Assembly (NCBI GenBank): GCA_001683735.1
Contig: LUGG01000014.1
Coordinates: 558,001 to 622,000 of the forward strand
Source: Grifola frondosa
Taxonomy: Eukaryota > Basidiomycota > Agaricomycetes > Polyporales > Grifolaceae
DNA: 64,000 bases
Direction: 5' to 3'
Within the stretch, counting starts at the first letter, position 1; every line of letters starts with the position of its first letter. The position numbers and the translations under genes were made by a program. Positions 1 to 64,000 of the stretch are shown piece by piece. Under the pieces are notes generated by a model that ran no database searches, was not told the DNA's origin, and was given only the letters and a program-made list of their open reading frames with translations.

Positions 1-33
1 AAATTTATGCGCTAAAACCCTTTCACCTCCCAG

Positions 34-1962
34 GAGGACGAAGAGCTCCTCCAGGAGTTCGACGAGCTCATGCGCTCGGGAGCTACTATGAAGGTCTCGT
101 TGACTCCGGATAGGTTGAAAACTATGGAGGTGCGTGTTCGATGTGTCCAGTTGATTAGCATAGTCGTCGACATCGTTTTTGAAGGTGTATAAGCAGGAGA
201 GGACTGAGCGGGCAAACCGTCGGCCCACGATCACCGCTGACAAGGGGTCGGAAGGTGGCGTTCCTGCTACTACCTCTGAGCCGAAGCATGGGGTCCATAG
301 TGGTCGAGCTGCTCTTCGCCACGTGGACTCTATCGTAGAGGACGAAGAAGAAACCAACAACTCCACTAACCCTCCACCGTCATCCTTTCAGCCCCCTTCG
401 GGCTCCCGAACGCGACAGACCAGTCTAAGCAGCACAAGCCCCACATCAGCATCTCGCCCTTTGAAGGGACGCTTTCGTTCCATCTCCATATCAAACGTGC
501 CTCATCCACGACACGACGACAGCGTGTCGCGAAAATCTGCCAAGATGCAGGCGTCCCCAATCAGAGCTGTTCCCATCTCATCTTCGCAGAGCGATGGGCC
601 TCGCTACAGCCTGCCGAAACATTTATCTGACCAGCCATCACGAACGAGGAAAGTCGGGCGCAATCGCGAATCGCTAGATTTAGACGAGGTGATGGCGGGC
701 GAGGATGGCGAGGATCATGCGGATACGGTATCGCGTTCATCCAGTGCTACTATCCGTACGAAGCCGAAGTCCCCACACATCTCGAGGGCTGCGAGGGACC
801 TCATCGATTTCCTGGATGAGGGTCCTCCGGAGGAGCCTAAGTTCCCTCCTGTTCCCAGTATGAATGCAAGCGTCATTTCATTCGAGTCGTCGAGGAATAG
901 GTCGGGTCGCTTGCAGCGGATGATGTCGAAGCTGTCGATTGGTGGGTCAAGGGAGAATTTGAATGGACGGGGTGTCAGCGAGGAGATATCGAAGCCGACG
1001 AGGTCGCTTTCGCGTAAGGCGTCCAACAAGGCGACCCCCCCTCCGCTAGCATACGCGCAGTCCTCACTATCGTCTAAGAAGTCATTCCCTAACGTTATAA
1101 TAGCGACTCCTCCACCTCGCCCGGCTCCACTCGTTTCAAACCTCATCTCACCTCCTATCTCAACCACTTCATCGTCTCACACTTCGACGGAGGATGTATC
1201 CCAGCCCTCTTCTCATCCCTCTCACTCTCTTTCAACGCGACGTGCGACTCGCAAAGCAGTCCCCGCATTTGAAGACTTCCCTCTACCCCCTCCTATTTCA
1301 CCTGCGGAAACAGATTCAGTGAAATCGTTGCGAAATTCTTCAACCCGCCATCTGTCCAACGGCCATTCGTCCCTACTGTACGTTTGAGGAAGTCCTCTCT
1401 TATCGGGGAGAATGGGGTCTCGAAGGCCGACGGACCTGAGTCGACTCTATCGCCGAGAGTCGTCACGTCTTCCCCCATCGGACGCAGGTCCCCGCAGTCA
1501 AAGGTTGAGAGCGGGTACATATCGCGCTCTGCTTCCAGAAGCCCGATTACTCCTTCGGACCGAACCCCAGCTCGCCTTCCCCTCGCCGCTGCTGATGTCG
1601 ATGATTTGCGGAGGCTGCTGTCATCAGCAACGAACGCGGACGAATGCCGTCTGCTAGTCGATATGTTCTTGGCCAAGAACGGGTTCCCATCCAAAGCGAC
1701 AACGCCTTCTGTTGACACAACTCAGCTATCGCCTCCCGAGAATATGGAAAAGTCGGAGTGTATCAACGATAGCCTCGAACGTTCCATTGTCGCATTGTTA
1801 CTCGGCGGAGATCACGAAGACGCGGAGGGTGCGAGTGACAACCATTCTGAATCCCCAGATACTTCTCCGGATACATCTCTTATCACTCCTGAAAACTCCG
1901 TCCTTCCTCTAATCGAGGACAAACAACGTATCGAGATACCTACCTCAATCGTTGCAGAATAA
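34..1962 (+). CDS. Uncharacterised Ser/Pro-rich protein, 3' part (5' end outside window)
   Basis: The window opens inside an intron whose acceptor (cag) ends at 33. Exon 34-129 reads EDEELLQEFDELMRSG and ends at a gtgcgt donor; the next exon starts at 185 and joins as ..LKTMEVYKQE. The protein is rich in Ser, Pro and Arg, with one compact stretch (RDLIDFLDEGPPEEP, near 800) and a structured-looking C-terminus ending at a TAA at 1960. The last part (DDLRRLLSSATNADECRLL) sits in a frame one base behind the first. The frames meet near 1315, where restoring one T gives ETDFSEIVAKFF, so I read one gene. The short conserved-looking blocks remind me of fungal GTPase-binding (Rid1/formin-GBD-like) proteins, but that is only an impression. 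Function unknown. Confidence 0.6.
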
Positions 1963-2270
1963 GTCTATACCGTAGATACCAAACTTATTAGTCCTTATTT
2001 CTTATTCCCAGCTCTTTGCATCTGGTATGCTTTAGTACTTGTACTGTGATCGTCTTACTCCAGCGCCGTTCATTACTTTTTACTCTTCACCGTCTACAAG
2101 ATTACTCGATCGTGATATACTGTCCCTCTATGATATACTTTTGACAGCTTCCCATCTAGGATGTGTGCATATATTACAGTAATAATGGGAAGAACGGGTC
2201 TCGAAAGGCTGAGTGTGCTAGGATGACAATACGACAACTGGACATGCAAACAAAACAACTAGATGAGAAA
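1963..2270. other. Convergent 3' intergenic, 308 bp
   Basis: This lies between the stop of the first gene (+) and the stop of RPA135 (-). It is AT-richer than the flanks and has no usable ORF. It presumably holds the two 3' UTRs and poly(A) signals. I see nothing else in it. Confidence 0.6.
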
Positions 2271-5200
2271 TCAACAAATTTCGAGTGAAACCGCGATCCC
2301 CATAGAAGCCAATTCAGCACACAGGTAACGGAACACATAGGGGATAGCTACGACATCAAGGTCCCCTCCCTTGGACGCAGGGCCCAGGACATGTTGAGAT
2401 GGAATTGCAACTCGGATGTCACCTTGCGTGATGGTCCGTCCGTTTTCTCGCCCGGCCAGCGCCTGACGTGCGCGTGCATCCTCTTCTTCTGCAGCGGCCC
2501 TGCAAACCCTGCAGTACTCTCCCCCAGGCCCTGTCGGCTTTAACGACCCTTTGGACCCAACAACCATCTCTCCCAAGCTGACGTCGTCGTATCCTAGCGA
2601 GATTAGACTGCCACATGTTCTGCAGACCCAGGCAGTGGAATAATCCGAGCAGTTCATGAGTCGATCTTGTAAGAGGAAGGCGGTTCCGTGAGCAATCAGA
2701 GCATCACGCTCCATTTCACCGAACCGAATACCACCGGCGCGTTTACGACCCTGTAGGCACATGCCATGAATAAATCACAAACATAAAAATGATGCGATAC
2801 TGACCTTGACTGGCTGTCGAGTCACGGGATCTACAGGACCTGTGGTTCGCACTTGGAACTTGTCCAAAACCATGTGTCGTAGACGTTGGTAGTAGACGAC
2901 GCCGATGTATATATCAGCAGCGAACTCCTGGCCAGTAATGCCAGAGTACATGGGCTCATTCCCATAGTAGTTGTAGCCGGCAGCAAGCAGCTGTTCTCCG
3001 AAGTAGTCCACCGCGGTATCATCTTCGGTAAATCTAGCATACTGATGAGGTCATGATACGGAAACACAACGGGAAACATACTGGAATGGGGTGGCATCTT
3101 GCGCAAGACCATGCATAGCGCCGGCTTTGCCTGCCATACTCTCCACTAACATACCGATGGTCATACGACTGGGGAAGGCGTGAGGATTGATGATGACGTC
3201 AGGTTGCATCCCGCTCTCTGAAAACGGCATGTCGATTGCCGGCCATTTTTGCGAGCATACACCCTTTTGACCGTGACGGGAGGAGAACTTGTCACCGATA
3301 ACGGGGGCGCGAGTTATCCGTAGAGTTAGGTTGATTTTTTCAACTCGGAATCTCCAGCGTCGCTCCCTGTTAGGTCAAATATATACATCAGTAATACTCG
3401 AACACAATCGATATTATTCTTACCGAGAAGGCGAACAGAATCTACGTAGGCCGTTTCGTCACCCTTGTACTTGACAAACTTCGTCCGGCCAGTGGTATCA
3501 TCCACATATGCAGCAAGAGGATCACCCATGGACAGTCGAGTACCAACAAACGGGAGCCCATCGTGATCGAGGAACTGACAGCAAGGATGTTGTCTTGGCC
3601 CTTCTTCAGTCCGAATCTCATAGCCCAAGCCGAAATGAAGAGTGGGCGTGGTTACTGTTCGTCTGGATCCGGACAATTCTTGCAGATCAACTGTATACGA
3701 TTTGTACACGGTGCCATATGCAAACCCACGCTCGTGCGCAGATTTGTTGAGAATCATGGCATCCTCCATGTCATACCCGGTGTATGATATCACCGCGACG
3801 ATGGCGTTAGTACCGTTCGGAAACGAATCCATGCCATAGGTGTTGTGTAGGGCAGGTCGTACTACCGGACTTTGACCAGTCTGCAGCCTGTACAGCTTGT
3901 TGTCTGTCCGGTGTATGAGAGCCGTTGCCGGTGTTCCCATGGTTTGTTTACCCATCTACATAGACGTATGCTCGTCATTCAGTAACTCAGAGAGAACGGG
4001 GGAGCTCACCTGGCATTGATAGATATTTCGGGGACTCTGCAATTGGTCAAGTTGGTGCTGCGACAGCTACAAAACCAGTGCTGACTCACCTGGTTGAAGT
4101 CCGAGAAGGGAGTGAGGTTGGCCAAAATAGAGAGAAAATTTGTGGGCGAATGCTCCACATGGGTAGATACGCCAGGTTCAATTTCCTCCGGTGTACACGC
4201 GATATCCATGTACACTTGCTCAAAGGAACCGACCTGGTCATCACGCCCATTTGCCAAATACTTCACAGGGCGCATCATCCGCGATCGTGAGGAGAACAAA
4301 TACAGCCCGGGGTATTGTCCACCTTTAGAGATCGGGACGTAACCGATTTCCAAATCCAAAGGAATGCTGTGTTTTCCCTCGGTCTTCCATATTCGCAAGT
4401 TCGTGGCAAGCTGCTGCATGACAGCGGGAGGTGCCCACCCGATCTGACGCCCGTCAAGCTGTATGCACAGATTGCGACGACCGTCGACGGAGGGGATGAA
4501 AGTCTGTGTCATGCCGTGAGCGGCTAGGAGGGAAGGTATATGAGCTACGGCTAATGGCGTGGTGACAATACGACATGTCCGAGACAAGTGATTGAGGAGA
4601 CCACAAGGTGAACCATCTGGGGTATGCACTGGACATAGGAAACCTGATATCGTACATCAGGACATATACGACGACTTTCAGTATGATGCTGCTCACCCCA
4701 TGCTTCCGGTAATAATTTTCGAACAGTCGTGGTCTTCAATTCCGCGAAGAATGCACCTCTGTGTATAGACCGAAAATGACTGATATATCGTTGCCAATTA
4801 AGCTTCTCGGCAACAATCGTGAAACCAGATGCTTGTTGTAGGTCAAGACCAGTTGGGGACACGAGGTTACCGGTAGCTAAGAAATTGGACATTTTAGCAC
4901 CGATGTCGAAGTTCGTTCGTGCAAGCACTTTCTTGATGTAGCGCTCTGAGCAATAACACCTCAGCGTTCGATACTTGATGGATCCAAACAAAAACCTACT
5001 GTCAAAGAAATCCACAGACGGGGCAGAATTCCGGACATCTATAGCGATCCCCTCGCGCAAACTGTTCAGTCCCTCCTCTAATCGTTCTTTGATAATCATG
5101 CCATACAGTGTCCCAGGAAGGAGAACTTCTTGATGTTGCGGTGAATCTGGATTGTCGACGCAACACGACTTGGACACCAAGGAGTAAAGTTTTCTCAACA

Positions 5201-6590
5201 TGAATCTAGAAGTGTTTATCTGAGAGAATGATAATTGCTACCATTGAAAGACTCACAAAAGCATGCGAAATTTCTCCCTCGGGGACTCAAGGTGAACGAG
5301 GACCAACTTTTGAATAAGCCACGCGCCGATAGCTTGATTGGTCCAATCTTCTGGCATATTCACCACCACGCGGAACTTATCGCCAAGATACTGGAGGCAT
5401 TGATCGCCAGTGTACAACGTGTACATCTTGAAACTGCGCAGAAGCAATTCTACACGGTCCGACAAGAACGTATCCTCGTAATCTTGCATCATGACACCCT
5501 CGAAGATCTCTTTGTCTGACGCAGAGACCAGGGCTTTTAGAATCAGCATGATTGGTATAACATATTCTTGCTTGCGCCAGCTGAACCGAAGCATCGCACT
5601 ACCATTTGATAGATAATGGAGGGTATTTGTGACACTAGTCTGGTCTGGGCGAACGCAGCGTATTTGCACAGCGTAAGAGGTATATGAAGGTCCTCGGTTC
5701 ACGAAAGATGGGCGAACGAGAGCTACAACGTGATGTCGTCGAGGTAAAATGAGGTATCGGATAAGTCGCTCGTTGCCATTAATGACAAAATATCCGCCGA
5801 ATTCTTCGGGTTCTTCGTGGTGAACGACGAGATCAGCAGAGGACATGCCTCGCAGATTACACCTTGCGGACTGGAAAATATTTGGATCCTCAGATATTAA
5901 TAATCGCACAAGCGTGTGCACTAACCCGGACCATGATGGGCAATAATCCACAATCCCTTGTCTCAACCTCAATAGGACCATCATTGACGCGCCAACATAA
6001 TTTGACTATCATACGACCACGGTACGATGTTAGGCGTTCGCGAGCCTAAACAGTGCAGCAAATAAATCAGCAGAGCGTTTGAGTCAGTAAACCCTTTTAA
6101 ATAATCCGAACGGAAGCACAGTCCACAACGCGTTCAATCTCACCTCTGATGGAAAAACCTTCCTCTCCAGAGCATCCTTATCCTTCTCAGATACCATAGG
6201 TCTCGCAACAGTCACCTGCTCGTACCACACTTGAATCCAACACTTCATGATCGCCATTAATAAAGACCAACTGCAATTACTTACTGGTCAAGCGATTGCC
6301 CCAACCCTGCTGTCCGCTCTCTGACCCAAGTTGACCCTTGCCATCAAATACGACACGTTCTCCAATGTCTTTAATTGCCAGGGAGAGAAGGCCACGACCA
6401 TCACCATCACCAGCAGGCAGGCCAGAATCGTCGAAGAGTGCATTAAAGGATTCTAGATGCGGGGTAACAAATTCGTTCAAGATTGGGACTACAGCGCCAT
6501 TTTTGGGGGGCTTTTGAACTGCTTCTCTCTATTTAACGTGTTGAATGTGCTGCCTAGCTTCGTAGAGGGGTGTCGGGATAGATCTGGCAT
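2271..6590 (-). CDS. RPA135: DNA-directed RNA polymerase I subunit RPA135 (second-largest subunit)
   Basis: Second-largest (beta-like) subunit of RNA polymerase I, which transcribes 35S rRNA in the nucleolus. Pol I landmarks appear in order: N-terminal [42 protein letters not shown]; the [14 protein letters not shown] fork region; [36 protein letters not shown] near 3260; [20 protein letters not shown]; and a C-terminal zinc site CRTCG..CRVC. About 1,200 residues, the usual family length, in a dozen or so exons. The start is ATG at 6590, because the alignment-like block NTLNREKQF lies in its frame. Exon 1 ends at 6285 and exon 2 starts at 6229. Two one-base slips (T run 3335-3340; 6500-6510) break the frame in highly conserved text and look like sequence errors. 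It shares a 183-bp promoter with the NUP98 gene. Confidence 0.95.
4010..4036 (-). other. 27-nt exon of RPA135
   Basis: The exon reads SPRNIYQCQ. It is flanked by a cag acceptor and a gtgagc donor and joins DFNQ to MGKQTMGTP exactly as the subunit family requires. Confidence 0.85.
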
Positions 6591-6773: not shown

Positions 6774-9700
6774 TGTTTGGTTCTAATACCGTCTCATCAT
6801 CTTGGGCAAACCCACAGCAGAACCAACAACAACAACCCAGTGCATTTGGCCAGCCTTCAGGCTTCGGCACCGGCAGTACGCTTCTGTCAACTAGAACTCA
6901 TTTCGCGCGCCCCTTCTAACCTGTCATGCAGCTTTCGGCTCCGGAGGTGCTTTTGGCCAACCACAGCAGCAGCAGCAGCAGCAACCTCAAACGAACCCGA
7001 TGTTTGGCAATCTTGGTGGCACTCCCAGTACCAACGCTCCCAATACAGGATTTGGTGCATCTTCGCGACTTTCGCTCTCTTCCTTCAATCTTTACTAAGC
7101 TGCTTTGCTTTTCATCTCAATGACAGGTGCTTTCGGATCCAATCCATCAGGCAGCACAGGCTCTCTCTTTGGCCAACCAAAACCAAACACTGGCTTCGGT
7201 GCATTTGGAGGCGGCGGTACTTCCGCGTTTGGGGGTGGTACTTCAGCTTTTGGCGGAGGAGGAGGAGCAGGGGCGTTTGGTGGTGGCAGTGCTGGCACTC
7301 CCGGGACAAGCAGTGGTATCTTCGGTGCCCAACCGTCTACTAGTACAGGAGCCTTTGGCGGCGGCTCATTTGGACAGAAGCCGGCCACGACTGGTTTTGG
7401 TATCGGGTCTAGTAAGTGGACTTTCCTCAACAACATGGGCGTCCGTTATGTCATCATGCTCATTCACTCGAGCAGGCGCTGTGGTACCCGTAACCACTGG
7501 AACGGGAAGTCCTCCGTATGCTGTCACCTCTGAGAAAGATAGCCCTTCCGGCGGCATGTCTCATTATCAGAGTATCACAGCCATGCCACACTACCGTAGT
7601 TCTTCTTTTGAGGTCAGGTTCCACGTGCATGTCTATTTTTGTTGTTGACTATTGACGACCACCATCCACTCAGGAACTCCGGGTACAAGATTACCAACAA
7701 GGTAGAAAGACAGCACCAACGACAAGTTTCGGACAACCTGCCTTTGGAGCACCTTCTCAACCAACTTCCAGCTTGTTCGGTCAGCCTGCAGCACCCGCCA
7801 CAAATCCGATGTTCGGAACATTTGGTGGCACAAGCACTAATCCCCAGCCCAGCACAGGTGGGGCTTTCGGTAGCTTTGGTCAACAACCCACTCCTGCTCA
7901 GGGAAGTGGGAGTGCATTCGGTGGCGGGGATTCGGCCAGCCATCGACCCAGCCATCCACTGGGTTTGGCACGGGTGCGTTTGGACAGGCTCAGCAGCAGC
8001 CCTCTACGGGAAGTACTTTTGGTGGAGGCGCGTTTGGGGGCGGTGGCGCTTTTGGTCAACAACAACAGAAGTCGGCATTTGGTAGTCTCGGTATGTGATA
8101 TTCACATCTATATTATGACTTTCGTTCTGACCGCATTATTATTCAGGTGGCGGCGGTGGCGGCACATTCGGCGGCGGCGGCGGTGCATTTGGTCAACCAC
8201 AAGGTCAGCAGCAACCTTCCACGGGATTGTTTGGGCAACCTCAGCAACCTCAAACTGGCGGTGCATTTGGTGCATTCGGTAAGGGATTTGTTTGTATGAT
8301 TTTGACGAAGCTGAGACTTCAATCATGAAGGTCAACCTGCAACGACTGCGGCGAATGTTCCGAAAACCGGTATCTTTGGTCAACCCGCGCAGCCAAGCAC
8401 TGCGTTTGGTGCCTTTGGTCAGCCTGCACAACAGCAACAGCAGCCGCAAAGTACACAACCAACGGGCGGTCTGTTTGGCGGAGGTGGCCTGTTTGGAACC
8501 CAGCAGCAACAAGCAACCCAGCAACAACCCCAGGGCGGTGGTCGTACGTCTCTAATTGAATCGTCGTTCTGCTCAGCGCTAACAAGAGTCTCCAGTGTTT
8601 GGTACCCAACCTGCTCAACAACAGACGGGTGGAGGATTGTTCGGCACGGGCGGAGGTGGTGGTTTGTTTGGTACCGCACTCAGCACGCAGCACCGCAACA
8701 GCAGCAACCGGCTCAGCCAACCGGGTTTGGCATATTTGGTGGTCCCAAACCTGCTACCACAACGACAGGAACAACAGGTGGAGGACTGTGGGGCCAAACT
8801 ACCCCTTCTGCTGCACCTACACAGCCAACTACAAGCCTCTTTGGCACGCCTCTAGGTCAGCAACCTGCGAACCAAGGGATAGGAGCCTTCGGCGGTGGTG
8901 GGCTGTTCGGCAAACCTGCTGCGCCTGCTCTAGGGTCGACTCTGTCAAGCGGACAGCAAACCGGTGGGCTCGGGGGTTCTCTGTTCGGCAGCACCTTCGG
9001 AGCGTCAACCGCTGCGCAGGGCCAGCAAGGGCCACTCACTGCATCCATTGCTCAGCCAATCGGTGCCAATCTTCCCATCTTCAGCATGTTGCCTCCTGGT
9101 CCTCGCGCGATACCCCTTGATCAACAGCCGAAGAAGAAAGGCGGATTCTTTGTAGATGTGCCGACGCGCTCGCCCGTTCCTAGATTGGAGTTAAGATACT
9201 CCCCCGCGGGGTCAAAGCTTCGTGGCTTTGCTACCGGTGCGGGTGCAAGTACCTCAGGACCCGGTGCGAGCCAAATGGGCAGCAGTCTAATGTATTCGTC
9301 CGGCAAGCCGAACGCTCTCTCGTTAAGCAAGGCAGCGACTACAAAGAGTCTTTTGGGCCCGGACGCGTTCTTGAACGGAAGCGCTCCGAGCCCCAGTCTT
9401 GGTAGCAGCATGCCTGCAAGCGTTAAGAAGCTCACGTTGGACAAGAAGGTCGAGCCTTCAGATCTCTTCAGCAAGTCGGGGATTCAGGGCTCGAGGCCGA
9501 CGTTCAGTCCTGCGTTGAGCATCGCTGCCCGCGAGAGGGAAGCCGCCGCGACTGCTGCCGCTGCGGCGTCATCCGTATCTGGGCGACCGCCTGAAACACC
9601 CACCCCCTCGTCCCGCATTCAGCCTGCGAAGTCGACTCCTAACCGCTTCAATGCGCAAGGCTCCGTGGAGCAGCTCGATGTCGGCGCCGAATCTCCAGCT

Positions 9701-36400: not shown

Positions 36401-38167
36401 ATGAGGATCATAGGTGTTTTGCTAGTATCGCTGGCTTTCTATGCTTGGTACGCATATGCGACACTGCTCTCGCGGAGGTCAGATCTCGACAGACCGATCA
36501 CTTCGTGGTTGGATCTACCCGAGAATGTTCAACGTACCTGGGCGATGTACTCTCCTTACTTTCCTGTGGAACCATATCAACCTCCACAGAATTGTGAGAT
36601 AACAGAGGTGAGCAATCCTTCTTGCGCTGATCATGACGTCTTTCATTGGGTGTGTTCAGCCGTGAGGCTGCGTTGCCACGCGAGAAGGGCATCGCTCACA
36701 TGTTTCTTGTGCTCATATCATGTAGTCGAGAAGCTGACTCCTTTCTTATTGTAGGTCAACATTGTGCGTACATAACTGTATGTTTGGAATGCTTCGCCAA
36801 CATGTTCATTAGCTGCAAAGACATGGTGCCAGATATCCTACTTCAGGGGCCACCAAATCAATCAATGCAGCTCTAGCCAAGCTACTGTCTGTGAAAAACT
36901 TTACCGACCCTAGGCTTGCATTCCTTGAGGAATATACATATAATCTTGGCCAAAACGATCTGGTGGCCTTTGGTGCGGCTCAGTAAGCTGTATTTCATGG
37001 TGCTATCAGTGGTACGAGTCTCACGTTATATAGATCATACGACGCTGGACGGGAAGCTTTGATACGGTATTCGCACCTTGTCAGCGTAGACAATCTGCCT
37101 TTTGTGCGGGCATCGAGTTCCGATCGTGTCGTAATGTCCGCCGCAATTGGACTGCAGGTAAAAGTAGCTCATGTTTGAAGCAACATGACTTGAGCATAAA
37201 ATGCCGCTTTTAAGGATTTGCTGCCGCAAGTCAGAGCAAGTACACACCAGGCTTATCAGTCATCCTTTCCGAAGCTGTATGTACATTTAAATATGTCGAT
37301 TAACCTGCCATTCACGGAATACTGTTAGGGAAACGATACGTTAGACAATAACCAATGTCCTTCTGCAGGTTCTTCGGACTCTGAGACCGCGCAATGGCTC
37401 GCCACATATGCTCCTTTGATCACGATGCGTCTCAACGCCGCCGCGCCGCACGCGAACCTCACCGATGCCGACACATATAGCCTGATGAGCCTATGCCCGT
37501 TCGAGTCCGTTGCTGAGGAAAAGCGGAGCAACTTCTGTAACCTTTATGATGAGTTTGACGCGTTCGAGGGGTTTGAGTATGGCGGAGACCTAGATAAATA
37601 CTACGGTACAGGGTGGGTGGCAGTCATCTGTCTGGTCTTTTGAATACTCTCCTGACATTGGAGATCGTGTTTTAGATATGGACAATCGCTTGGGCCTGTG
37701 CAGGGTGTCGGTTATGTCAACGAACTGCTCGCGCGGCTCACGAATACCGTCGTCTCCGACCATACGCAGACAAACACCACACTTGACGCTGATCCTGCTA
37801 CGTTCCCGCTCAACCACACGTTATATGCAGACTTCTCCCACGACAATCAGATGATCGCGATCTATGCTGCTATGGGCCTCTTCCCGCAACACGCGGCACT
37901 CGACCCCACAGCGCCGAATCCGCACAGGAGTTGGCGCGTCGCAAAGCTGGTGCCATTCTCTGCGCGTATGGTATGGAGAAACTGCGGTGCCCGGGGCGAG
38001 GGAGGGACGGGGGCGAGTACGTGCGAGTATTGGTGAATGATGCCATACAACCGCTGGCGTTCTGTGGTGCAGGAGACGACGGCGTGTGCGCGCTTGACGC
38101 GTTTGTAGAAAGCCAGAACTACTCCAGGAGTGATGGAAATGGGGACTGGGAAAAATGTTTCTTGTGA
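36401..38167 (+). CDS. Histidine acid phosphatase, basidiomycete 6-phytase-like
   Basis: Secreted or membrane-tethered phosphomonoesterase that releases phosphate from phytate or other esters. ATG 36401 gives a hydrophobic N-terminus (IIGVLLVSLAFYAWYAYA), then MYSPYFPVEPYQPPQNC. The catalytic RHGARYPTSGAT motif is near 36820, reached over a 49-nt intron. It continues NLGQNDLVAFGAAQSYDAG, SSDRVVMSAA, NDTLDNNQCPSAG, EFDAFEGFEYGGDLDKYYG, GPVQGVGYVNELLARLTN and the proton-donor motif FSHDNQMIAIYAAMGLF. The C-terminus is VRVLVNDAIQPLAFCG ... WEKCFL. Conserved cysteines and N-glycosylation sites are present. Two bases are missing: 37145-37146 (repair gives AANWTAGFAAAS across the intron) and 37972 (repair gives RMVMEKLR). 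Confidence 0.88.
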
Positions 38168-48500: not shown

Positions 48501-48606
48501 CGTTGGTATGACTCCTTCCTTGATGCTGTCTCACCAATGTGTCTGTTCAATTTCAGCAGATGCTCCCGCATCAGAGATCGTTGATGATACTGTAGATACC
48601 GTGTAG
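45595..48606 (+). CDS. SEC27: Coatomer subunit beta' (COPI, Sec27)
   Basis: COPI coat subunit for retrograde Golgi-to-ER vesicles; its WD propeller reads dilysine cargo signals. Starts MLLDVN then, after an intron, [19 protein letters not shown] repeats are plain: [79 protein letters not shown] and [17 protein letters not shown]. The WD-associated region ([45 protein letters not shown]) and an alpha-solenoid ([34 protein letters not shown]) follow to a TAG at 48606. About 840 residues in ten or so exons. Three single bases are missing in the middle (47091-47094, 47284-47285, 47450); restoring them gives [20 protein letters not shown] and TAKWIGDCF. Confidence 0.95.
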
Positions 48607-48917: not shown

Positions 48918-51900
48918 ATGGCCTCCCTCAATTCTCAGGCGGTCAGCTCCGGGGACCTCATTGACTTGGTTTCGTCCTCGACATCTGCGACAGTCTATCC
49001 TTCTGATGACACCATCCTGTCCGTCCTACAAGCACGCTTTCGCGCAGATTTACCATACACCAGAGTCGGTGCATCAAACCTCATTGCCATTAATCCGTAC
49101 AAGGCATTAGCCAATGTTAACGACGCCAGCGCAAAGGAGTACGAGGAGAGATGTTACAAGGATACTAGCTTTCCGTTACCTGGGACATCACCTCTGCCAC
49201 CGCATCTATATGACCTTGCTGCGAGGGTATATCTGCTTATGAGAAGGCGGAATGAATCGCAGGCAGTGGTGTTCCGGTGAGCGCCCGTTGACTGCCGACT
49301 GGTTGAATATATGAGGTGACCTTGGTTCCATAGCGGTATCACAGCATCCGCGAAGAGCGCTAGTGCCCAGCTGCTGGTCAACCAGGTGCTAAAGCTGTCC
49401 ACGCACTCAAAGAGAGAAGCTAGGCTCGCCGAACAAATTAAGGCGCTGACGCCGCTCCTTGATTCCTTCGGCAACGCAAAGACACTGATCAACCCTAATG
49501 CATCTCGACACAGTCGCTATCTCGAGCTACACTTCAACGAACGTGGCCGCATTCAAAGCGCGAAGGTTCTGGCGTACGGACTGGACAAGACCCGTCTTAA
49601 CCGCCTTACGTTCGAGGAGCGCACGTATCATGTCTTCTACCAATTCCTGGCAGGAGCTACTCCTGAGGAGAGGGATCGTTACAACTTGGAGGATCCATCA
49701 GATTACGCCTTGCTTGCATCATCAGGGTGCTACCGTCTACCCTCGGGTCCCTTTAGCGATGATTCGATTGCCATGGCTGATTTGCGTGTGGCAATGAAGA
49801 CTCTCGGATTCAAGTCTAAACACGTTGCTTCCATCTTCAGCCTCCTCGTCGCTATTCTCCTTCTAGGAAACCTTCAATTTGGCGAGGCGGATGCGCGTGA
49901 CGTTTCTGCTTACGTCTCCAACATGCCTGTGCTTGAACATGTTGCGAGACTCCTAGGAGTCGGTTCAGAAGAGCTTGGTGAGGTGTTGACGAACAAGACA
50001 AGCTACGTGCGGAAGGAACTGTACACTGTCATGCTGAATGCTCATCAGAGCGCTGCCCAACGCGACCAACTCGCGCGGGACCTCTATGCGATTCTCTTCG
50101 CCTTCGTTACTGAAACAGCCAACCACAAAATCGCGCCCGGTGCGCAGGACTCTCCGCCGCCCACGCAGATCGTCATCTTCGACCAGCCTGGATTCCAGAG
50201 CAAGGGTGCTCCTGGTTCGGCATCAGTGTACTTTGGAGGCCCGGCGCCTTTAGTTTCGGCTCAAGGCCAGGCTAGTTTCGACGAGTTCTGTATCAACTTC
50301 TCCAACGAACTTCTGCACTCATACGTGCTGCGGAATACTTTTGAGGATGCGGTCGGATACAATAGTCAGCTCACGGGCGACGGCATCACGTTACCTTCGG
50401 TGACTACGATGGATAATGCAGGTTGCATTGAGCTGTTACGAGGAGCGCAATTGAGTGAGAGGGCACACAGGAAACCTGGAGGTATGCTTGGGGTGATGAA
50501 CAAGGCATGCTCATCCTTCAGGCTGGGAAGAGCGGGGATAAGAAGGAAGAAGAGATGTTGCAGGACCTCGTCTCGAAGTTCGGAGTTCACGCGTCCTTCG
50601 TTGCCCCTTCGGCGGAAACACCAGAGACTTTCACCTTTGGCGTTAACCACTATGCAGGTAGCTGCACTTACGACGTTCATGGCTTTATCGAGAAGGACGC
50701 GGACATCCTCGATTCCGCTTTCGTGACTCTTCTTCGCAACTCTTCAGATTCATTCGTTTCAAAGTTGATGTCAGGCCCCAGTTTGGCTACAGAGCGTCAT
50801 TCGAAGGACGAGAGTATTCTTGTTCAAGCTCAGGTTTCATCACGACCGCTCCGTCAACCTACTCCCATCTTGTCTCGAGACAGCTCATTACCCTCAAATG
50901 GCGAAGAACACGGGCGCCTTGACCCTACGAAGGTTTACCCCGTCACCACGCAGCTTAACTACAATCTTTCCGAGATCATGTCCAGTCTCGACAGAGCCCG
51001 CTTGTGGACCATATCCTGCATTCGCCCTAATGACTCCGGCTCGTCGAATTCTTTCGACAAGCGAAGAGTCAAGGCACAAATTCGTTCCTTGTTGTTACCT
51101 GATGTCGTCGCAAGGCGAAAGGCCGACTATGTGGTCGACTTCGAGCATGCTGCGTTCTGTGACCGATACGTTCCTACTATCGGGGGTTCAGAGCAGGAGC
51201 GAATCGCCCAATGTGCTCGTGCCAATGGATGGCAGGATGGGATGGATTATGTGGTCGGCCATCGCATGATCTGGCTCACCTACTCTGCTTGGAAGATGGT
51301 TAGGATGTTCTTCGGGCGACAGAAAAGGAGTTGAAGAAGGGTTCCGGAGAAGGCGCTGAGGATGACGAGAGCATATTGCCGGATGATGCAACCGAGTACA
51401 CGCATCACGATGGATCGCTCGCGACGCCTACTCCCTTCTACGAAGTCGGCGCCAGTGAGGAAAACCTGTTGCTCTCACGGATGGGGACCAACGGTACTCA
51501 TTATCATGACCCCAACCTCAATGCCAGTCACCTCCAAGTACCCACATCGCCCTCTCACGCAGATACGCCGGCGTATAGTGAAGGTGAAGGCGAAGGTTGG
51601 GGTTCCGAGTGGGACAAGAAGGGTGACGGCAGCGGTGGTCTGCCTCTCGCACAGTCCAAAGAAGGCGGCATGGTGGTCAAGGAAGCGCCTAACACTGTTG
51701 AAGAGGTACCGACGAGTCGTGTCCGGCGGAATTGGCTGTATCTCGTGTGGGCGACAACATTCTGGATCCCGAACTTTCTCTTGAACAAACTCGGCCGCAT
51801 GAAGCGACCTGACATTCGGCTTGCTTGGCGGGAGAAGGTGACCATTTTCTGGCTGATCGTATTCTTCAACGGTGTTATCCTCTTCTATATCATTGAATTT

Positions 51901-54900
51901 GGCCGTCTCCTCTGCCCTGATAGTAACAAAGTCTGGGCCATCAATGAGGTCAACCAACACACAGGAGACTCAGATTTTTGGGTTGCTATTCAGGGTCAGG
52001 TCTACGACGTCTCGAACTTCATTCACGGTGACCACAGTGACATTTCTGGGGAAGCTAGCAATGGTGCCGACACGCTGGCGACTATCGCTGGCCAGGATTT
52101 GACAGGCTACTTCCCGATTCCACTCACTCTTGGATGTCCAGGGCTCGTGTCGGACACGAATGCCGCGCTCACGCCTGCAAATTTCACGGATTACGTGCCC
52201 ACCGCGATACACACCTCTGGTTCCCAGCAGGCTGTCTCGACGTCCAAACTTCACCAGGACGATTGGTATACCGCCATCTTCTTACCCAAGATAAAGGAGT
52301 TTCGCAAGGGTAATCTCGTGGTCACCAAGCAGGACATTGCGGCTGAGGCTAATCAGCAGGATACCCAACGGTAAGCATACTACCTTTATTACGTTCTTTC
52401 ATTCCTCATTCCTCATACCTCCGAAGTCTCTGGGCCATCTGGAACGACAACGTCTATGATCTTTCAGACTACTTCAATTCCATCACCGTCAATACAGGGA
52501 ATTCGGAGTATTCCTTCCTCAGTGAGGCCATTACAGACTTGTTCAAGCAGCAACCTGGTCAAGATATTACGAAGTCTATCAATTCAGCATTGGCCACCAT
52601 GGACGCGACGACTGCTGCTCAGAATATCGACTGTATCAAAAATTTGTTTTACGTTGGACAGGTCGATTTCCGGAAGACTCCCCGTTGTCAAGTACAGAAC
52701 TATATGCTGTTGGCGTTTAGTATTCTATTGATGTCTTCGATGGGACTCAAGTGTAAGTAGTTCTAATACGTCCGATGAATATCGCTGGGAGCTGATCTTG
52801 TTGGTATATTTAGTTCTGGCCGCATTGCAGATGTCTCCCAAGCGGCATCCAGAGATGCTCGACAAGTTTGTTCTGTGTCAGGTTCCTTGCTATACTGAAG
52901 GCGAGGATTCCTTGCGTCGTACCATTGATTCCCTCGCTGCGCTTAACTACGATGACAAGCGGAAACTTATATTCCTCATCTGCGATGGCAATATTATCGG
53001 TACCGGTAACGACAGAACAACGCCTCGTATCGTCCTCGATATTCTCGGCGTTGATCCCAAGTTGGACCCGGAGCCCCTGTTGTTTAAGTCGATCGGCGAA
53101 GGGTCTAAGCAGCTGAACTATGGAAAGGTCTATTCTGGTCTTTATGAGTTCGAGGGCCATGTCGTTCCGTAAGTGCTCTCTTCGATGTCACACGATGTCG
53201 AACTGAATGTCTCTCGTTTAGGTATATCGTTGTGGTCAAAGTCGGCAAACCCACCGAGCGCACAAAGCCAGGCAATCGTGGCAAACGTGACAGTCAGATC
53301 TTGTTGATGCAATATCTCAACAGAGTTCACTTTGATGCGCCTATGACACCGCTGGAGCTGGAAATTTATCATCAAATGCGCAATGTCATCGGTATCGATC
53401 CTGCGTTCTATGAATATATCTTCACTGTGGATGCTGATACGGTATGTCTCCTACGGTTTCTTGGTCTTACAGCTGCTCAAACTTCTGTACTATTCACAGA
53501 CTGTAACACCTGAATCACTGAATCGTCTCGTTGCCTCCGCTGCCGACGACTCGTCTATCATTGGCATCTGTGGAGAAACAAAACTTGACAACGAAGAAGG
53601 ATCGTGGTGGACCATGATTCAGGTATGATTGCCTTTGAAGTGATTTTATACATACCCACTCACCGTCTATAAAGGTTTACGAGTACTACATTTCTCACCA
53701 TCTATCCAAAGCCTTCGAGAGTCTTTTCGGTTCCGTGACATGTTTGCCTGGTTGTTTCTCGATGTATCGCATTCGGACAGCCGACAAGGGTCGACCTATC
53801 ATCATCTCCAACCGCATCATAGAGGAGTACTCTGAACCGAACGTCGATACTCTGCACAAGAAGAATCTGTTGTCTCTCGGAGAAGATCGTTTCTTGACAA
53901 CTCTTCTTCTCAAGCACTTCCCCACATTCAGGACGAAGTTCACGCCGGACGCTCTTGCCCACACAATCGCACCAGAGTCATGGCGTGTTCTGTTCTCTCA
54001 GCGACGTCGCTGGATCAACTCGACCGTCCACAACCTTTGCGAGCTGGTCTTCCTGCCTGAACTCTTCGGTTTTTCTGCTTCTCAATGCGATTCTTTGTGT
54101 TCATCGATTTGCTTGGTACATTGGTGCGTATTGTTCACATATCACTCTCACTCGCAGCTCACATATGTTGCAGATCTTGCCATCGACTGTCGTTTACGTG
54201 AGTAGTTTGCATGCGGTTCAAGTCTCGCTCGCTGACGATATTTCTTCCAGCTGGTTTATCTGATCATCGTCACGGCCACCGGACAATCGGCCATTCCTAT
54301 CATCTCTATCATCATGTTGGCTGCAGTATATGGTCTCCAGGTGTGTAGTTCGTGGTTCAAAAATGTGACTGTTAGCTCATGTCACATGCAGGCAATCATC
54401 TTCCTTCTTAAACGAGAATTCATGTTGATCGGATGGATGGTGGTATACATCCTCTCGTAAGTTCTATTTGCGTTAACACTAACGAGAAGTTGATGTAAAT
54501 TGCTTGCACAATAGTTATCCGGTCTACAGTTTCTTCCTACCGCTGTACTCGTTCTGGTGCATGGACGATTTCAGTTGGGGTAACACGCGTCTTGTTATCG
54601 GCGAAGGTAACAACAAGAAGGTCCTCATGAATGATGATGAAAAGTTCGATGATTCCATGATTCCTTTGAAGAAGTTCAGCGGTATGTGCCATTGTTCAAC
54701 ACTAACACTTACTCTAACTTCTGACGCATGTATAGAATACGAGGCGGAGGCTTGGGAGACTGGCTCCCGTCATTCTGACGAGACTGGCTACAGTGGTAAA
54801 GCACGTTCGCGGTCACGCGCTCCCGGTTCAAGAGCAGAATCTCCACACAGCTTCCACCAGGCGTCGCATGCGGGCGATTACTATCGGGATACCAATGTAA

Positions 54901-55506
54901 CCAGCCAAAACGGCTCACAACGCAACGCGTCCCAAAGCAACCTCTCGCATTACACTGCCCAACAGCCGATGTCTCAGTTCAGCCTTCCGCACCAGCCCTT
55001 CATACCATACGGAGGGCCTGGATCCGCTGCTGGATCGGATTATGGTGGTCAAATGCCCATGCCTGGACCTATGCCCTACCAGAACACGGGTAGTGTCTAC
55101 GGAATGATGCCAACCGCTCCTCGCAATACCGTCATGACAAACCTGAACATGTTCGGTGGCGACCCCAATGGCTCGCAAACAGGGTTTGCACCCCCCATCG
55201 CGCCAGGAATGCAACGGCCGATGTCGACATTCTCTTTAGCGACATCGGTGAATCCGTTCGCCGGACCAAGCATGAACCCTAATCCCAGTGACGATGATCT
55301 CGTCAACGCACTGCGGAACTACCTGAGCACGCAAGACCTGATGACAGTCACAAAGAAGTAAGTTTTGCGCTTCAGACATTACCAGATATTGACAGCGTCG
55401 CAGGACTGTTCGGGAAGCCATCCAAGCGCGATTCCCCAAGGCAGATCTCTCAGACCGAAGACAGTTCCTGAACGATGCTATTGACAATATACTCTCCCAG
55501 TCATAG
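48918..55506 (+). CDS. Chitin synthase with N-terminal myosin-motor-like domain (class V/VII type)
   Basis: Plasma-membrane processive glycosyltransferase making cell-wall chitin from UDP-GlcNAc. About 1,950 residues. Order: myosin-like motor (about 1-750; [68 protein letters not shown]); linker; two membrane helices ([35 protein letters not shown]); cytochrome-b5-like domain ([20 protein letters not shown]); chitin synthase core with [41 protein letters not shown] and [12 protein letters not shown]; membrane helices; a Ser/Gln-rich stretch; and a DEK-C domain ([20 protein letters not shown]..). The P-loop position reads [12 protein letters not shown], not GESGAGKT. Three missing bases (50520, 51301-51302, 54070-54074) break the frame; repairs give [29 protein letters not shown] and [10 protein letters not shown]. 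Confidence 0.95.
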
Positions 55507-57628: not shown

Positions 57629-60600
57629 CTACAGCTTCCGCTCGATAAAGCTCTCAATAACTCCTGCAGTTGTGAGGGGATATTCCTTGAGCACGACCTC
57701 CCCGTCGACTATGAACGTGTTCGGCTGCACGAAGATTTTCCGCGGCTATACCAAGACAGTCACAGTCAGCACGCGACCGAGAATCGACGACGTTTGACAT
57801 TATTCTCACCAGCTTCTTCTTGAGGACGAGATCCCTGATCTCGCCATCCCACCCGGGAAGTGGCGTCGTGAGCGCGGTGTAGAACTGTCGCGCACCCGCG
57901 CCGTCCGCGGTGCTCTTGCGCGTCTGCAGCTCGACGAGGAGCTTGCCCGCGACATCCTTGCCCTCTGTGAGCACCTTCTGTCTGTCGACCTGAGTGGGGA
58001 CGTCGGTGTCAGGGTAGAAAGGCAGAAGGCGGGACAGAATATACGTACGCGGACATAGAGGTTCTCAAGGGACCCGTCCGCTGTGCGGACCTCTTCGAGG
58101 CGCGCGAGTCCAGCCTTGATCATGAACAGTGTGATACCCATACTGATGAAGGGATTAGTGCGCTTGCTGGGGCAGGAAGGGAGAGGAAAGAGCATACCGC
58201 GCCTGCATATGCGCCTGGCCGTGCTTCTTGGTTGCAGGGTCGTAGAACTCGAGAGCGCGTAGGCCTGCACGAGCCATGAGCAGGAAGGAAATGTACTGAA
58301 TGTCGTCGATGTCCTTTTGGTCGACATACTGGTGTGAGAGAAGTTGATTAGCGTGCGATAGGGCAATGAGGGAACATCGCTGGAGCTTACGCTGAAGATC
58401 TTCAGAATGTCCAGGTTGCTGACGACTTCGCAGATGCAGGAGATTAGATACGAAGACACTGCAGAAACGTTTGAGGGCACTTACGATAGAGCGCAACAGA
58501 CTCCGCCCGGCATTCCTCCATCGACGAGGACACTTCACCCAGAATGGAGTCGGGAGTTTGGCCCGGCTTGTACCACGACGTACTAAGAAGCGACGCTCGT
58601 GAGTCAGCATTCATTCTCGGGGGAATTAGCGGACTTACATGGGCTTCCCGGTGAGGGGGTTGATAACCTAAACCATATCTCAATAAGCCCCGGTTTATTT
58701 CGCATGTGAAGAGCTTGACCGCACCTTCGCGGGATCAAAGTTCATCTTCCCATCGGCGCTCTCCTGGAACAACTTGCCGCTTCCGTGCCCAACAACTCAT
58801 GGTTCGCCACCTGCAGCTCGAAGGCGCGGGTGTCCCAAGCGTTGTACAGCTCGACCACGTCGTGAATGAATGTCAGCTCCTCATCTATATGAATTACGGC
58901 CTTGTTAGCATCGCACTAGGCAGATGGGAACATGAGCATACTTGGAGCTTTAGCGGCAAGGATATTCTGCATGTACAGATTTTATGTAAGTACCGGTTAA
59001 ACCCGTCATGAGAGACGAAAACGTACCGCTAGCGAGACATTCTTGAAGCCCGTCGACTCGCGGATTTCATAGTAGTTCTGGAGGGATGGTTGGGTATCAT
59101 ATACTAGATGTAAACATGCAACTTACTGGAATCTACACAAAAAAGGGTAAATGAAGATCATACGTTTAGTGCTTTGCGACACTCACATTGATACCGGCAG
59201 GGATGCCTAAAGAAATTTGAGACAGGTTGAGAATCAATAAGCGATACTGGCTTACCTCCTGTGGCAAAGGTCACGACCTCCAGGGCGGTGAAATCCGGTT
59301 TTCTAAATACATCAACCTCGAAGTCTTTGCCCCATGGCAATGACTTGATTAACTCCGGCGCATCGTTGACCAGCTTGTCGTATTTGGCACTCAGTTGCTT
59401 GTCCACAATGGCAGTGAATCCTAACGAGAAACGGTCAACGTGTTATATTTGCACGTGGTGGACTATATTACCTTCCCATTCCGCTCGGCCGCCATATGGG
59501 TCAACATACGTTTCCACGAAGCCGATATAGCTCTCGACCACAGGGCCGACGTCCTTGACCCACTCCGTCGAAGCTTTCTTGTGCGCAGGGATGGAACCTG
59601 TCTTAAAACTATTCGCCGGTGGCATTAAAGACGTTAGGCGGCATTCAGATTGCACCGAAACGGAACACACACGACTCGATGTAACCTTCGATCATGGCGG
59701 TCTGATGGTCGTTTGCGGCATATTTCTTGGCCTATAGAGATAGAGTTAGAAGGGTGAAGAGATTATCTAGAGAATCTCAGGACCTCAGCGAGCGCCGCGT
59801 TGACTTTCTGCAACGCATCTGCGAAGTCGCCGTATTCAACAGTCAGCGCTGCCTTTTTGTCAAGTATGTCAATCGTATGCAGGGAGGAAGCCTGCGAGGC
59901 GGCCGACGCCACGAGTAAAGTGAAGGTGTCAGGACCGTCCTTGCGTACCCTGCATGTAGTAACCCGGTAAACAGCAGCTTCCCAGAATGAATTGGGATGG
60001 CATACCGGGTGTTTAAGACGTCGATTCCAAGTTTCTCCGCGGATGCCTGCACCGAGGCGACCTCCTCGTCGAGAATCGGATCTCCAAGATAGTAGTTGGA
60101 GATGTGGCCAAGATTAGGCTTGCCGATAGAGTTGCTGGACTCGGGAACGAGTTGGTAGATATGGCCTTTGAGCTGCATCGATCTCGCTAAGTCCACAGCA
60201 CGTCACGCATAGATGGCATGGACTGTCGACTCACTTCATTCCACAGCTTCAGTGCCTCCGACGCATTCGCACATTTTGCGACGACAGCGCCAAAGCTGTC
60301 CTCGGAGATCCGGGGCACGATCTTCGTGAACCCAAAAGATTTGTAGTTCACCAGATTGCTCAGCACCTAAGGCAGAAGGCACGGTGAGCACAATTAAGCC
60401 CTGCCATATGGCACGGCGCGTCGTTGAGAGAGCGTGCACCGGTGAATTACCTGGCTAGTGTACTGCATCAGATCTTCCCATTCCTCCGCTGTCACACCCG
60501 AGCGTTGCTGCAGGCTCCCAAGGTCCGTAAGCTTATCGTTATCGCTGAAAGTCAGGATCAGGAGATCATAGAGCTTCTGCGCCTGAGGCGTCCACTGGCC

Positions 60601-61329: not shown

Positions 61330-62775
61330 TACCTCCCGGGCCAGAGCATATTCTCATTTCCGGTTTTGTCGGGGAACCAGGCTCTTCAAGCTCTTCAATA
61401 ACGACTCCGTCCGCATCGAGCCCGATCCCAGCGACATCCACGCCCGCCTGGAAGTACGTGCGCTGGACGTCCAATTCCAGACGAGGTGTCCGCGCCTGGG
61501 CTTGTGGCGGTGGCGACGACCGCACCAGCGCGGGCGGTGGCGGGAGCGTGAACACCGGTGAGAACATAGCAGACGATGCGAGCGGTGGATTGGGGGAGTA
61601 CGGTCGCGGAGACGCCGTCCACCTGTAGCCATAATCTGGGAGCGTGTCAGGTGTCGCCGGTCTACTCCCGCGCCGAGCGAAGTCAGGAGATGGTGGCGGC
61701 GGGAATGAATATGGGCGCGAAGGAGAGACGCGGTCTGCGAAGAATGTGTAGTAAAATCGTGGAGAATTCCGCGTGCCGGCGGCAGGCCTTGCAGTACCTG
61801 AGGAGGATGCGCGGCGGGTATGTGTGGGAGTCCGACATTGCCAATAGCTTGGTCCGGAGGGGTGAAGAGGTCTGGATGGCTGCGGGGATATAGGAATACT
61901 GGCCGAGAAGATGCTCTCAGAGGCTGCTTGACATGGGAGGTACCGCGTGCCCAGAGCGTTTCCACTGCAACAGGGTCAGAGTAAGATAGCTGAGATCAAA
62001 ACGCCACTGCTCACCAGACCGCACAGCCTATCCCTTCGCGAACGCAACCGCATGCGCTCTTCAGCATTTTGGCGACGATGGAGCGATCAAAGTACTTCGA
62101 GTCCATGCCTACGACGGCCTCCTGCGCATCGTCGCGCGCCATCCATACTCCACGGCCGCACTGCGGAAATGCCCGCATGTGCACAAGCGTGCCGCAGCCG
62201 TTCGTTCTGCGCGTTGGGCGTGTGCCTGCGCTTGCCCGGGCGCAAGGAGAACCCGTACGAGGATACAAGGGTAGAGGCGAGGGCTGGAACGGCGCGGGCG
62301 CGGATTCATCCACGCTACACTCCTCCCCTCCACAAAACAACATAAACGGCTCCTCCTCCACCGGTGCGTCTCGCCTCACGTCCTCGAATTGGATACCGCT
62401 GCTCTCGCCTCCGACGTCCTCTGCATTCCACTCACGCCACTCTCCGCCGCTGTAAGTGTACTCGTCCTCCCCGGCACCGTCAGATACTTGTGTCGGGCTA
62501 GCTGTTCTCGCGATTATTATTGGGCGTGGGTTGGCAGTCACAGAACCAGAGGCTGGGGGTATCGTGCCAGACAAGGGCCGAGCGCCACTCGGCAGACCAT
62601 GCTCGAGGCGCATAGCACCACGCCGTCGAAGGCGAGAAGCCTCCCCTGTGCGCACGAGGTCCGAGAGGAAGATAGAATCGTCTGCATCGACAGGCTGCGG
62701 CGGGGCCAAGCTGGAGCGACGGCGGGGTGAAGGACGCGGAGTATATTCAGAATGCCTACGGTAGACTTGAGGCAT
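61330..62775 (-). CDS. Uncharacterised protein with a small cysteine cluster
   Basis: Starts MPQVYRRHSEYTPRPSPRR at 62775. The first part is Arg/Ser/Pro-rich, then ARPLSGTIPPASGSVT, an acidic patch and MDSKYFDRSIVAKMLKSA. The only compact element is a cysteine cluster spanning an intron: CGCVREGIGCAV + CGNALGTRYLPC, probably a zinc-binding ribbon. The next exon continues in phase as FYYTFFADRVSPSPPYSF and a Pro-rich tail to ELEEPGSPTKPEMRI near 61345. A gtaatg donor follows; the true end is unresolved and could lie as far as 60998. No family recognised. Confidence 0.55.
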
Positions 62776-63139
62776 GGTACAAAACAAGATGGGAGATATA
62801 CAGTATGGGTCTGCGGTGAAAGATGGAAGTGGTCGAGATGGAAAAAGCGGAATGAGCGCGGGCACAGACTTTCACCGCCGCAACAATCCGTCGTGGAGGA
62901 CGCAAGGTCTTAATTATGTCAGCATCGTCAAATTACTTCCGCACCGTCGGCGCTTAATTACCCCATACGGCATTACTATCGAATGCCGAGCCAAATAAGG
63001 TTGGTACCCCCTGTTAAGAGGCCGAACTTATCACCAAAACGTGGTACATATAGCGCATGTAGGTAGAGCCATGTACCTCTGGAGAAAATATCGTATCGTA
63101 CAAAAATAGTGCCTATACATGAGACCGGGGTATTCGCGC
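62776..63139. other. Intergenic, 364 bp
   Basis: Promoter of the Cys-cluster gene and 3' UTR of the Nudix gene, both on the minus strand. AT-rich near 62900-63000. Nothing else seen. Confidence 0.45.
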
Positions 63140-64000
63140 TCATAGCTTGCTTCGAGCACGCCGCTTGTCTCGAGTCCGAACCTGTCGTCGCAGAGCAGAG
63201 GGCTCTGGAATCCTGCCAGGGTCGATACCTTCCAGCGCAGCAGCTTCCCGAAAGATGGGGTCATGCTTGAGCGCACGTGCTATCCGCTGCTCCTGCGAGG
63301 GCTGGCCAGGCGCGTTGACCTCAAAATCAGGCGCACGCGCATACCCTATGGTAGCTACCCTGATGAGAATGGCGCTACACCTATATGAGCGTTTTGCGAG
63401 CAAGTGAGAATGCGGAGCAGGAACATACGCAGTGAGCCCGAAGATAGGCTTCGTCCCGCCTGTTTCTCTTCCGGTCATAAACCGGTGCAGGCGGACCTTG
63501 CCTGGACGAGTGCTCGAGCTGACGTCGTCGTATGTGTGGTACTTCATCTCGAGCATCTCGGGCTCAGTAGCGAAGGGCGGTTCCGAATGCAGGAAGGAAA
63601 TCAGCGGATGCGAGAAGAGTGAGGTCACCTCTGGCGTATTCAAGATTGGCTAGAAATGCCGTAAGCAAAATAGGGGGATGGGTGGTGAATGGCTGACGGA
63701 CTCGAAGCGTGTTATCCAAAATTAATACCACAACACTGCGATAAATAGTGGGTCAACAAACCTCTTGTATGTCAATTATGAAGATACGTACGGAGTGACT
63801 ATCAGGCTATTACCAGCCAAGAACGGTTCCAGGATACATAGTAACGGAACTTTCTGAGGATCTAGCGGTAAACCTATCTGCTGGATTCAACGATGTCGCC
63901 TGATGGTATTCAAAACGCTATACCTCTTCGAATGCTTCACGTCGCTGAATAATGATTAATGAAGGGGGAAGCATTAAAACGTAAGATATACACGTACAGC
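63140..64000 (-). CDS. PCD1: Nudix hydrolase, coenzyme A diphosphatase type (PCD1-like), 5' end outside window
   Basis: Hydrolyses CoA or CoA derivatives to phosphopantetheine and 3',5'-ADP, often in peroxisomes. The Nudix box tail is visible across an intron: RREAFEE (about 63930) + IGLPLDPQKVPLL, matching REXXEEXGL. It then runs LCILEPFLAGNSLIVTP, VVVLILDNTLR, PILNTPEVTSLFSHPLISFL, HSEPPFATEPEMLEMKYHTY, RFMTGRETGGTKPIFGLTA, LIRVATIGYARAPDFEVNAP and a basic tail (RRQVRTRDKRRARSKL) ending at 63140. The final three residues, SKL, match a C-terminal PTS1 peroxisomal targeting signal. Introns are short and all joins keep phase. The catalytic domain start lies beyond 64000. Confidence 0.85.

What the first reader, a model, noticed from the sequence alone, without database searches (positions are those of the whole stretch)
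1..64000. About 20 frame slips in conserved genes, all in the deletion direction: an indel-prone consensus
Slips are near 1315, 3335, 6500, 7926, 8692, 16163, 27712, 27841, 30971, 37145, 37972, 47091, 47284, 47450, 50520, 51301, 54070 and 58787 (one base each), and about 21065 and 33503 (two bases). At each site adding base(s), usually to a homopolymer, restores family-conserved text; none needs a base removed. Essential genes (RPA135, SEC27) are hit repeatedly. This is a sequencing-consensus signature. Automated callers would split these genes or call pseudogenes.
Basis: partly seen in the sequence, partly recalled or inferred. Interest (0 to 1): 0.75.

Follow-up and report, generated by a model that had tools for sequence, protein, structure and literature searches.

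The report
Missing-base errors in maitake genome assembly
The broken reading frames in this stretch of the maitake mushroom (Grifola frondosa) genome look like single-base losses left by long-read sequencing, not biology, and they have damaged gene models deposited from it.

Summary
The window is G. frondosa, almost certainly strain 9006-11 (GCA_001683735.1), listed in a published table as PacBio only, 100x, 2016. I tested 12 of the 20 listed sites; all 12 are frame slips in the missing-one-base sense. Eight (RPA135 two, SEC27 three, a myosin-motor chitin synthase three) are each called by 30 of 30 relatives. DPP3 and phytase rest on one solved relative each. Two in an FG nucleoporin are the only frame switches there without a fitting intron. 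In one search no gained-base slip was called by more than 1 of 30 relatives, and a control shows no bias towards calling losses. RPB2 on another contig has the same fault. The rate is about one per 1.7 kb of conserved coding sequence. Three deposited proteins bridge slips with extra introns, off-frame stretches or truncation, losing 770 of 4021 conserved codons. Homopolymers explain part: 4 of 10 sites lie within 5 bases of a run of four or more. Six sites could not be tested; two fit only by reading. No reads were seen. An assembly artefact of a known kind.

The parts
2277..6590 (-). RPA135 (RPA2) gene, RNA polymerase I second subunit, 11 introns
   Evidence: Aligned with 30 relatives, 11 introns in at least half of them; extent; PDB match 7aoc_B
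6493..6512 (-). frame slip, -1; deposited protein P0002 starts only after it
   Evidence: 30 of 30 relatives
3339..3346 (-). frame slip, -1; inside a 206-base intron of the deposited protein P0002 that the relatives do not support
   Evidence: 30 of 30 relatives
45595..48603 (+). SEC27 (beta'-COP) gene; extent worked out from the deposited protein P0123, approximate
47089..47096 (+). frame slip, -1; P0123 runs off frame from here to 47261
   Evidence: 30 of 30 relatives
47278..47284 (+). frame slip, -1; inside an unsupported 46-base intron of P0123
   Evidence: 30 of 30 relatives
47449..47450 (+). frame slip, -1; inside an unsupported 141-base intron of P0123
   Evidence: 30 of 30 relatives
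48918..55403 (+). chitin synthase with myosin motor domain; start worked out from deposited P0241, end at least here
50514..50524 (+). frame slip, -1; P0241 has an unsupported 71-base intron just upstream and runs off frame up to here
   Evidence: 30 of 30 relatives
51302..51303 (+). frame slip, -1; at the end of an unsupported 50-base intron of P0241
   Evidence: 30 of 30 relatives
54074..54075 (+). frame slip, -1; deposited protein ends just before it
   Evidence: 30 of 30 relatives
57632..60175 (-). dipeptidyl peptidase III (M49) gene, aligned part
   Evidence: Pfam PF03571, 5yfb_A
58791..58792 (-). frame slip, -1, in the conserved HELLGH region
   Evidence: one reference, same at three penalties
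36813..38161 (+). phytase-like gene (histidine phosphatase branch 2), aligned part
   Evidence: PF00328, 1sk8_A
37971..37972 (+). frame slip, -1
   Evidence: one reference
7003..9001 (+). FG-repeat nucleoporin-like coding region
   Evidence: FG dipeptides by frame; PF13634 below its cut-off
7917..7931 (+). frame switch, no fitting intron, -1
8667..8726 (+). frame switch, no fitting intron, -1
30971..30974 (+). possible -1 slip in a mitochondrial carrier gene, by reading only
   Evidence: translation; carrier domain downstream
37138..37150 (+). possible -1 slip in the phytase gene, by reading only
   Evidence: translation; not needed by the alignment

Best explanation
The frame slips are residual single-base deletions in the assembly consensus. 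The strain was assembled from PacBio reads alone (published table); the dominant residual error of such a consensus without short-read polishing is a lost base, more often but not only in short homopolymers (recalled). The real genes are intact. Gene prediction on the faulty sequence then hid slips by an invented intron, a stretch read in the wrong frame, a late start or an early end. Shown: the slips, their direction, their recurrence on another contig, the damage in three deposited proteins. Inferred: that the living strain has the bases, and which step of the assembly lost them.
For: Eight slips in three genes, each by 30 of 30 relatives, all -1. Caller control: 1 false call in 24 simulated genes (97,284 coding bases); planted losses found 59 of 72 (53 with the right size), planted gains 64 of 72 (63 with the right size); 3 of the 59 found losses were given a gain sign and none of the 64 gains a loss sign, so the caller leans, if at all, against losses. 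No in-frame stop in 9 of 9 alignments of the three genes (the aligner penalises stops, which helps it avoid them). RPB2 on contig C1: one -1 slip in a highly conserved stretch, worth 85 to 95 half-bits net of the slip penalty. HSP70 family, six copies besides the one used as reference: one strong -1 slip on C12, three weaker -1 slips in two genes on C5, no gain. PacBio only, 100x, 2016. Runs of 5 or more within 5 bases at 3 of 10 sites against 2.2% of coding positions. The deposited proteins are read from this sequence (1084 of 1086, 793 of 796, 1472 of 1474 codons identical) and lose 151, 86 and 533 conserved codons.
Against: No reads were seen. At 100x a properly polished PacBio consensus should be better than one error per 1.7 kb (recalled), so polishing must have been skipped or failed, which I cannot show. 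Six of 10 sites are not within 5 bases of a run of four or more. The homopolymer spectrum of 254 kb is close to geometric up to eight bases and not cut off above that.
Confidence: 0.96

Rival explanations
1. The strain truly carries these deletions: the genes are decaying pseudogenes or belong to one damaged nucleus of a dikaryon.
For: The sequence as given is broken in these genes.
Against: No in-frame stop in 9 of 9 alignments and 79-89% identity to relatives. RPA135, SEC27 and RPB2 are essential (recalled). Of 17 matches to an RPA135 relative in this genome, those at 78% identity or more all lie at the window's own gene; the rest, at 26-51%, look like RPB2 and RPC2, so no second RPA135 was seen. 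Only losses, no supported gain.
Confidence: 0.02
2. The genes are expressed through programmed frameshifting or RNA editing.
For: A slippery-heptamer-like string lies on the coding strand near 2 of 12 examined sites, both in RPA135 (frame and chance rate not checked).
Against: No such string at the other 10 sites; relatives encode these genes in one frame with shared introns; sites are scattered over unrelated genes and contigs.
Confidence: 0.01
3. The reader mistook introns for slips.
For: The genes are intron-rich (11, 8 and 12 shared introns in three genes), and five of seven FG-nucleoporin frame switches do allow an intron.
Against: The aligner allowed GT-AG and GC-AG introns and still needed the slips; forbidding slips cost the RPB2 alignment 85 to 95 half-bits. 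It may still hold for some of the six untested sites and the two read only by eye.
Confidence: 0.01

Closest known systems
Indel errors of unpolished long-read assemblies (PacBio continuous long reads, nanopore)
   Same: Scattered one-base losses, frames broken in conserved genes, enrichment at homopolymers, damaged gene prediction. Seen: the starts of abstracts in search listings (PMC12007338 and PMC8812927, PMC9985148).
   Different: Here, in an intron-rich fungus, the three deposited proteins that I saw carry the errors as extra introns, off-frame stretches and truncation.
Purported pseudogenes that may be technical artefacts (PMC11017572, start of abstract in a search listing)
   Same: Broken frames that need not reflect gene decay.
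   Different: That work concerns bacterial genomes; this is a basidiomycete assembly.
Programmed -1 ribosomal frameshifting (recalled)
   Same: A gene that must be read across a -1 shift.
   Different: No motif common to the sites; relatives have one continuous frame.

Membership tests
Long-read consensus indel errors | One direction (losses) dominates | tested here: met
   12 of 12 tested sites -1; caller not biased towards losses
Long-read consensus indel errors | Genome-wide, not one locus | tested here: met
   RPB2 on C1, HSP70 relatives on C12 and, weaker, on C5; a handful of genes only
Long-read consensus indel errors | Enrichment at homopolymers | tested here: met
   4 of 10 sites with a run of 4 or more within 5 bases against 11% of coding positions; 6 of 10 without. 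All 20 listed places: mean longest run 3.45 against 2.76
Long-read consensus indel errors | Assembled from long reads without accurate-read polishing | tested here: inconclusive
   PMC9171200 Table 1, passage seen: PacBio only, 100x, 2016; polishing is not stated there
Long-read consensus indel errors | Accurate reads disagree with the assembly at the sites | not testable with these tools
   no reads held
Pseudogenes | Stops and relaxed constraint besides the frameshifts | tested here: not met
   0 in-frame stops in 9 of 9 alignments, 79-89% identity
Programmed frameshifting | Shared slippery motif at the sites | tested here: not met
   heptamer-like strings near 2 of 12 sites on the coding strand, both in RPA135

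The most novel reading that the evidence does not exclude
The strain's DNA really lacks these bases and the fungus restores frame during transcription or translation on a genome-wide scale.
Probability: 0.005. Interest if true: 0.95.

Novelty: not a real feature. Interest (0 to 1): 0.15.

Why it matters
The assembly is a working reference: passages seen show it used for a 60-strain SNP panel (PMC11340509), QTL mapping (PMC12734058), hydrophobin phylogeny (PMC10820438) and gene-family comparison between strains (PMC12028448). At about one loss per 1.7 kb of coding sequence a large share of its gene models is likely (inferred) to be truncated, wrongly spliced or read off frame, so counts of unique or missing families, CAZyme tallies and protein lengths taken from it need care. 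Deposited proteins with invented introns also enter protein databases without a mark.

Tried and rejected
Homopolymer truncation as a whole-genome signature: not seen. The run-length spectrum of 254 kb is near geometric up to eight bases, with fewer G runs of six or more than expected (13 against 25-31) and a small excess of A and T runs of nine or more (10 against about 1); the window itself has no run over seven. Codon-usage scoring around sites without homologs: too noisy to decide a site by itself. Pfam on the other sites: no useful match. RPC2-like gene on C5 with three RPA135 relatives as references: only losses were called (-1 and -2), one -1 near C5:693,690 by 3 of 3 and four other places by 1 or 2 of 3, worth 21-25 half-bits in all; not counted because the references are distant paralogues. 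An HSP70 reference first held a probable retained intron, and two slips were called beside it, one +2 and one -2; with that stretch removed both vanished. In one search slips called by only 1 of 30 relatives (one -2, two +1) were treated as noise. Phytase at the lowest penalty: an extra -1 and +1 pair, treated as alignment noise. A test on ribosomal RNA could not be run.
Full report
What the window is. The window is bases 558001-622000 of contig C13 of a 39.06 Mb assembly in 64 contigs; the contig has 1,314,274 bases. Public G. frondosa proteins from a contig of exactly that length are among the hits for RPA135 (P0002, 1086 aa), beta'-COP (P0123, 796 aa) and chitin synthase 8 (P0241, 1474 aa), and their codons are those of the window in 1084 of 1086, 793 of 796 and 1472 of 1474 cases (codons split by introns probably account for the rest). 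So these proteins were predicted from this sequence. Papers tie strain 9006-11 to GCA_001683735.1 (passages). Table 1 of PMC9171200, passage seen, lists it with 127 scaffolds, 100.0x, PacBio, 2016; the 64 contigs held here are fewer, for a reason I do not know.

The test. I wrote an aligner of protein to genomic DNA that allows introns (GT or GC to AG), whole-codon gaps and slips of one or two bases either way, with the same cost for losses and gains. For RPA135, SEC27 and the chitin synthase I used, of each list of 120 hits, the first 30 of fitting length, the G. frondosa proteins left out. Hits outside the length limits were dropped before this.

Result. RPA135: two slips, 60 calls over 30 relatives, all -1. 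SEC27: three slips, 90 calls of -1 and one stray -2. Chitin synthase: three slips, 90 calls of -1 and two stray +1. Each of the eight slips is called by 30 of 30, and each lies at a listed site. Introns found with at least half of the relatives number 11, 8 and 12.

Control. On 24 simulated genes without errors the aligner, with one relative each, made one false call (-1) in 97,284 coding bases. With three losses and three gains planted in each, it found 59 of 72 losses (53 with the right size; 3 were called -2, 2 were called +2 and 1 was called +1) and 64 of 72 gains (63 with the right size, 1 called +2), and made no extra call. It does not favour losses, and it misses nearly one loss in five, so the true rate is somewhat higher.

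Other listed sites. In dipeptidyl peptidase III one solved relative gives a -1 slip in the conserved HELLGH region, the same at three penalties, and one residue fewer upstream. In the phytase one solved relative matches one frame up to the site and another frame from it, and the alignment places a -1 slip there; at the lowest penalty a cancelling pair of slips appears upstream. In the FG nucleoporin the repeats change frame seven times between 7003 and 9352; for five of these a fitting GT-AG intron exists and for two none does, and these two are the listed sites 7926 and 8692. The sites 30971 and 37145 look right when read, but rest partly on recalled family text. For 1315, 16163, 21065, 27712, 27841 and 33503 I have no test.

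Not local. RPB2 on contig C1 has one -1 slip within YYPQKPL, in 1168 aligned codons with no in-frame stop; without slips the alignment loses 85 to 95 half-bits, net of penalties of 24 down to 14. In the HSP70 family the reference was built from one copy of this genome (C16). Of the six other copies, one on C12 has a strong -1 slip (51 half-bits net), two on C5 have three weaker ones (7 and 12 half-bits net), three have none, and there is no gain; the copies on C1 and one on C5 match at only 28-31% identity.

Rate. Ten slips (the eight, DPP3 and RPB2) in 17.19 kb of aligned coding sequence: 0.58 per kb, 95% interval 0.28 to 1.07 (for DPP3 I entered an estimate of 541 codons). RPB2 was taken because it was a paralogue hit, before any slip in it was known.

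Homopolymers. Of ten sites in the window (the eight, DPP3, phytase), four have a run of 4 or more within 5 bases (background 11.1% of coding positions) and three a run of 5 or more (background 2.2%). Over all 20 listed places the mean longest run within 8 bases is 3.45 against 2.76 (permutation p 0.0008). Enrichment is there, and incomplete.

Effect on deposited models, each compared with the path of one relative and the shared introns. P0002 starts late and has one intron of 206 bases where the relatives have a 57-base intron followed by an exon, losing 151 of 1225 conserved codons. P0123 reads off frame from 47095 to 47261, then has introns of 46 and 141 bases that the relatives do not support, losing 86 of 829; a further 65-base intron and a short off-frame stretch lie near its end, where relatives align poorly, and may be real. 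P0241 has unsupported introns of 71, 50 and 260 bases and ends after 54055, losing 533 of 1967; its Pfam list lacks PF13632, PF13641 and PF08766, which most full-length relatives listed have (not counted).

Conclusion. It is an artefact of a known kind. I found no paper that says this of this assembly in searches, which cover open-licence PMC papers only; one search listed 15 of 21 papers and one search listed 12 of 3,028, and PMC13150532, which holds all four terms, was not opened. PMC12028448 warns in general that differing sequencing technologies among the four G. frondosa genomes may bias comparison (passage).

Noticed in passing
45595-55403: SEC27 and the myosin-motor chitin synthase are neighbours here, and consecutive locus tags suggest the same pair is adjacent in other mushrooms (for example Taiwanofungus, Fibroporia, Rhodofomes, Agrocybe; names). 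Perhaps a conserved gene pair.
   Followed up: no
window and 19 other 10-kb stretches, 254 kb in all: Homopolymer lengths are nearly geometric up to eight bases; G runs of six or more are about half of expectation (13 against 25-31), A and T runs of nine or more are in slight excess (10 against about 1), and the window has no run over seven.
   Followed up: partly
58861 (-): One residue fewer than the reference in dipeptidyl peptidase III, 70 bases before the slip; a natural difference or further lost bases.
   Followed up: no
G000:C16:270449-272419: An HSP70 gene with an in-frame extra stretch of about 18 residues that other copies lack, probably an intron without a stop.
   Followed up: partly
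14835-16663 (-): Membrane protein candidate with one hydrophobic segment and a VSP-like Pfam score under its cut-off; site 16163 lies here and stays untested.
   Followed up: no
27806-28405 (+): Cysteine-rich stretch with an IBR match under its cut-off, perhaps an RBR ubiquitin ligase; site 27841 lies in it and 27712 just upstream.
   Followed up: no
G000:C5:690070-693685 (L042): RPC2-like gene; three distant references call only losses, one -1 place by 3 of 3. Not counted.
   Followed up: partly
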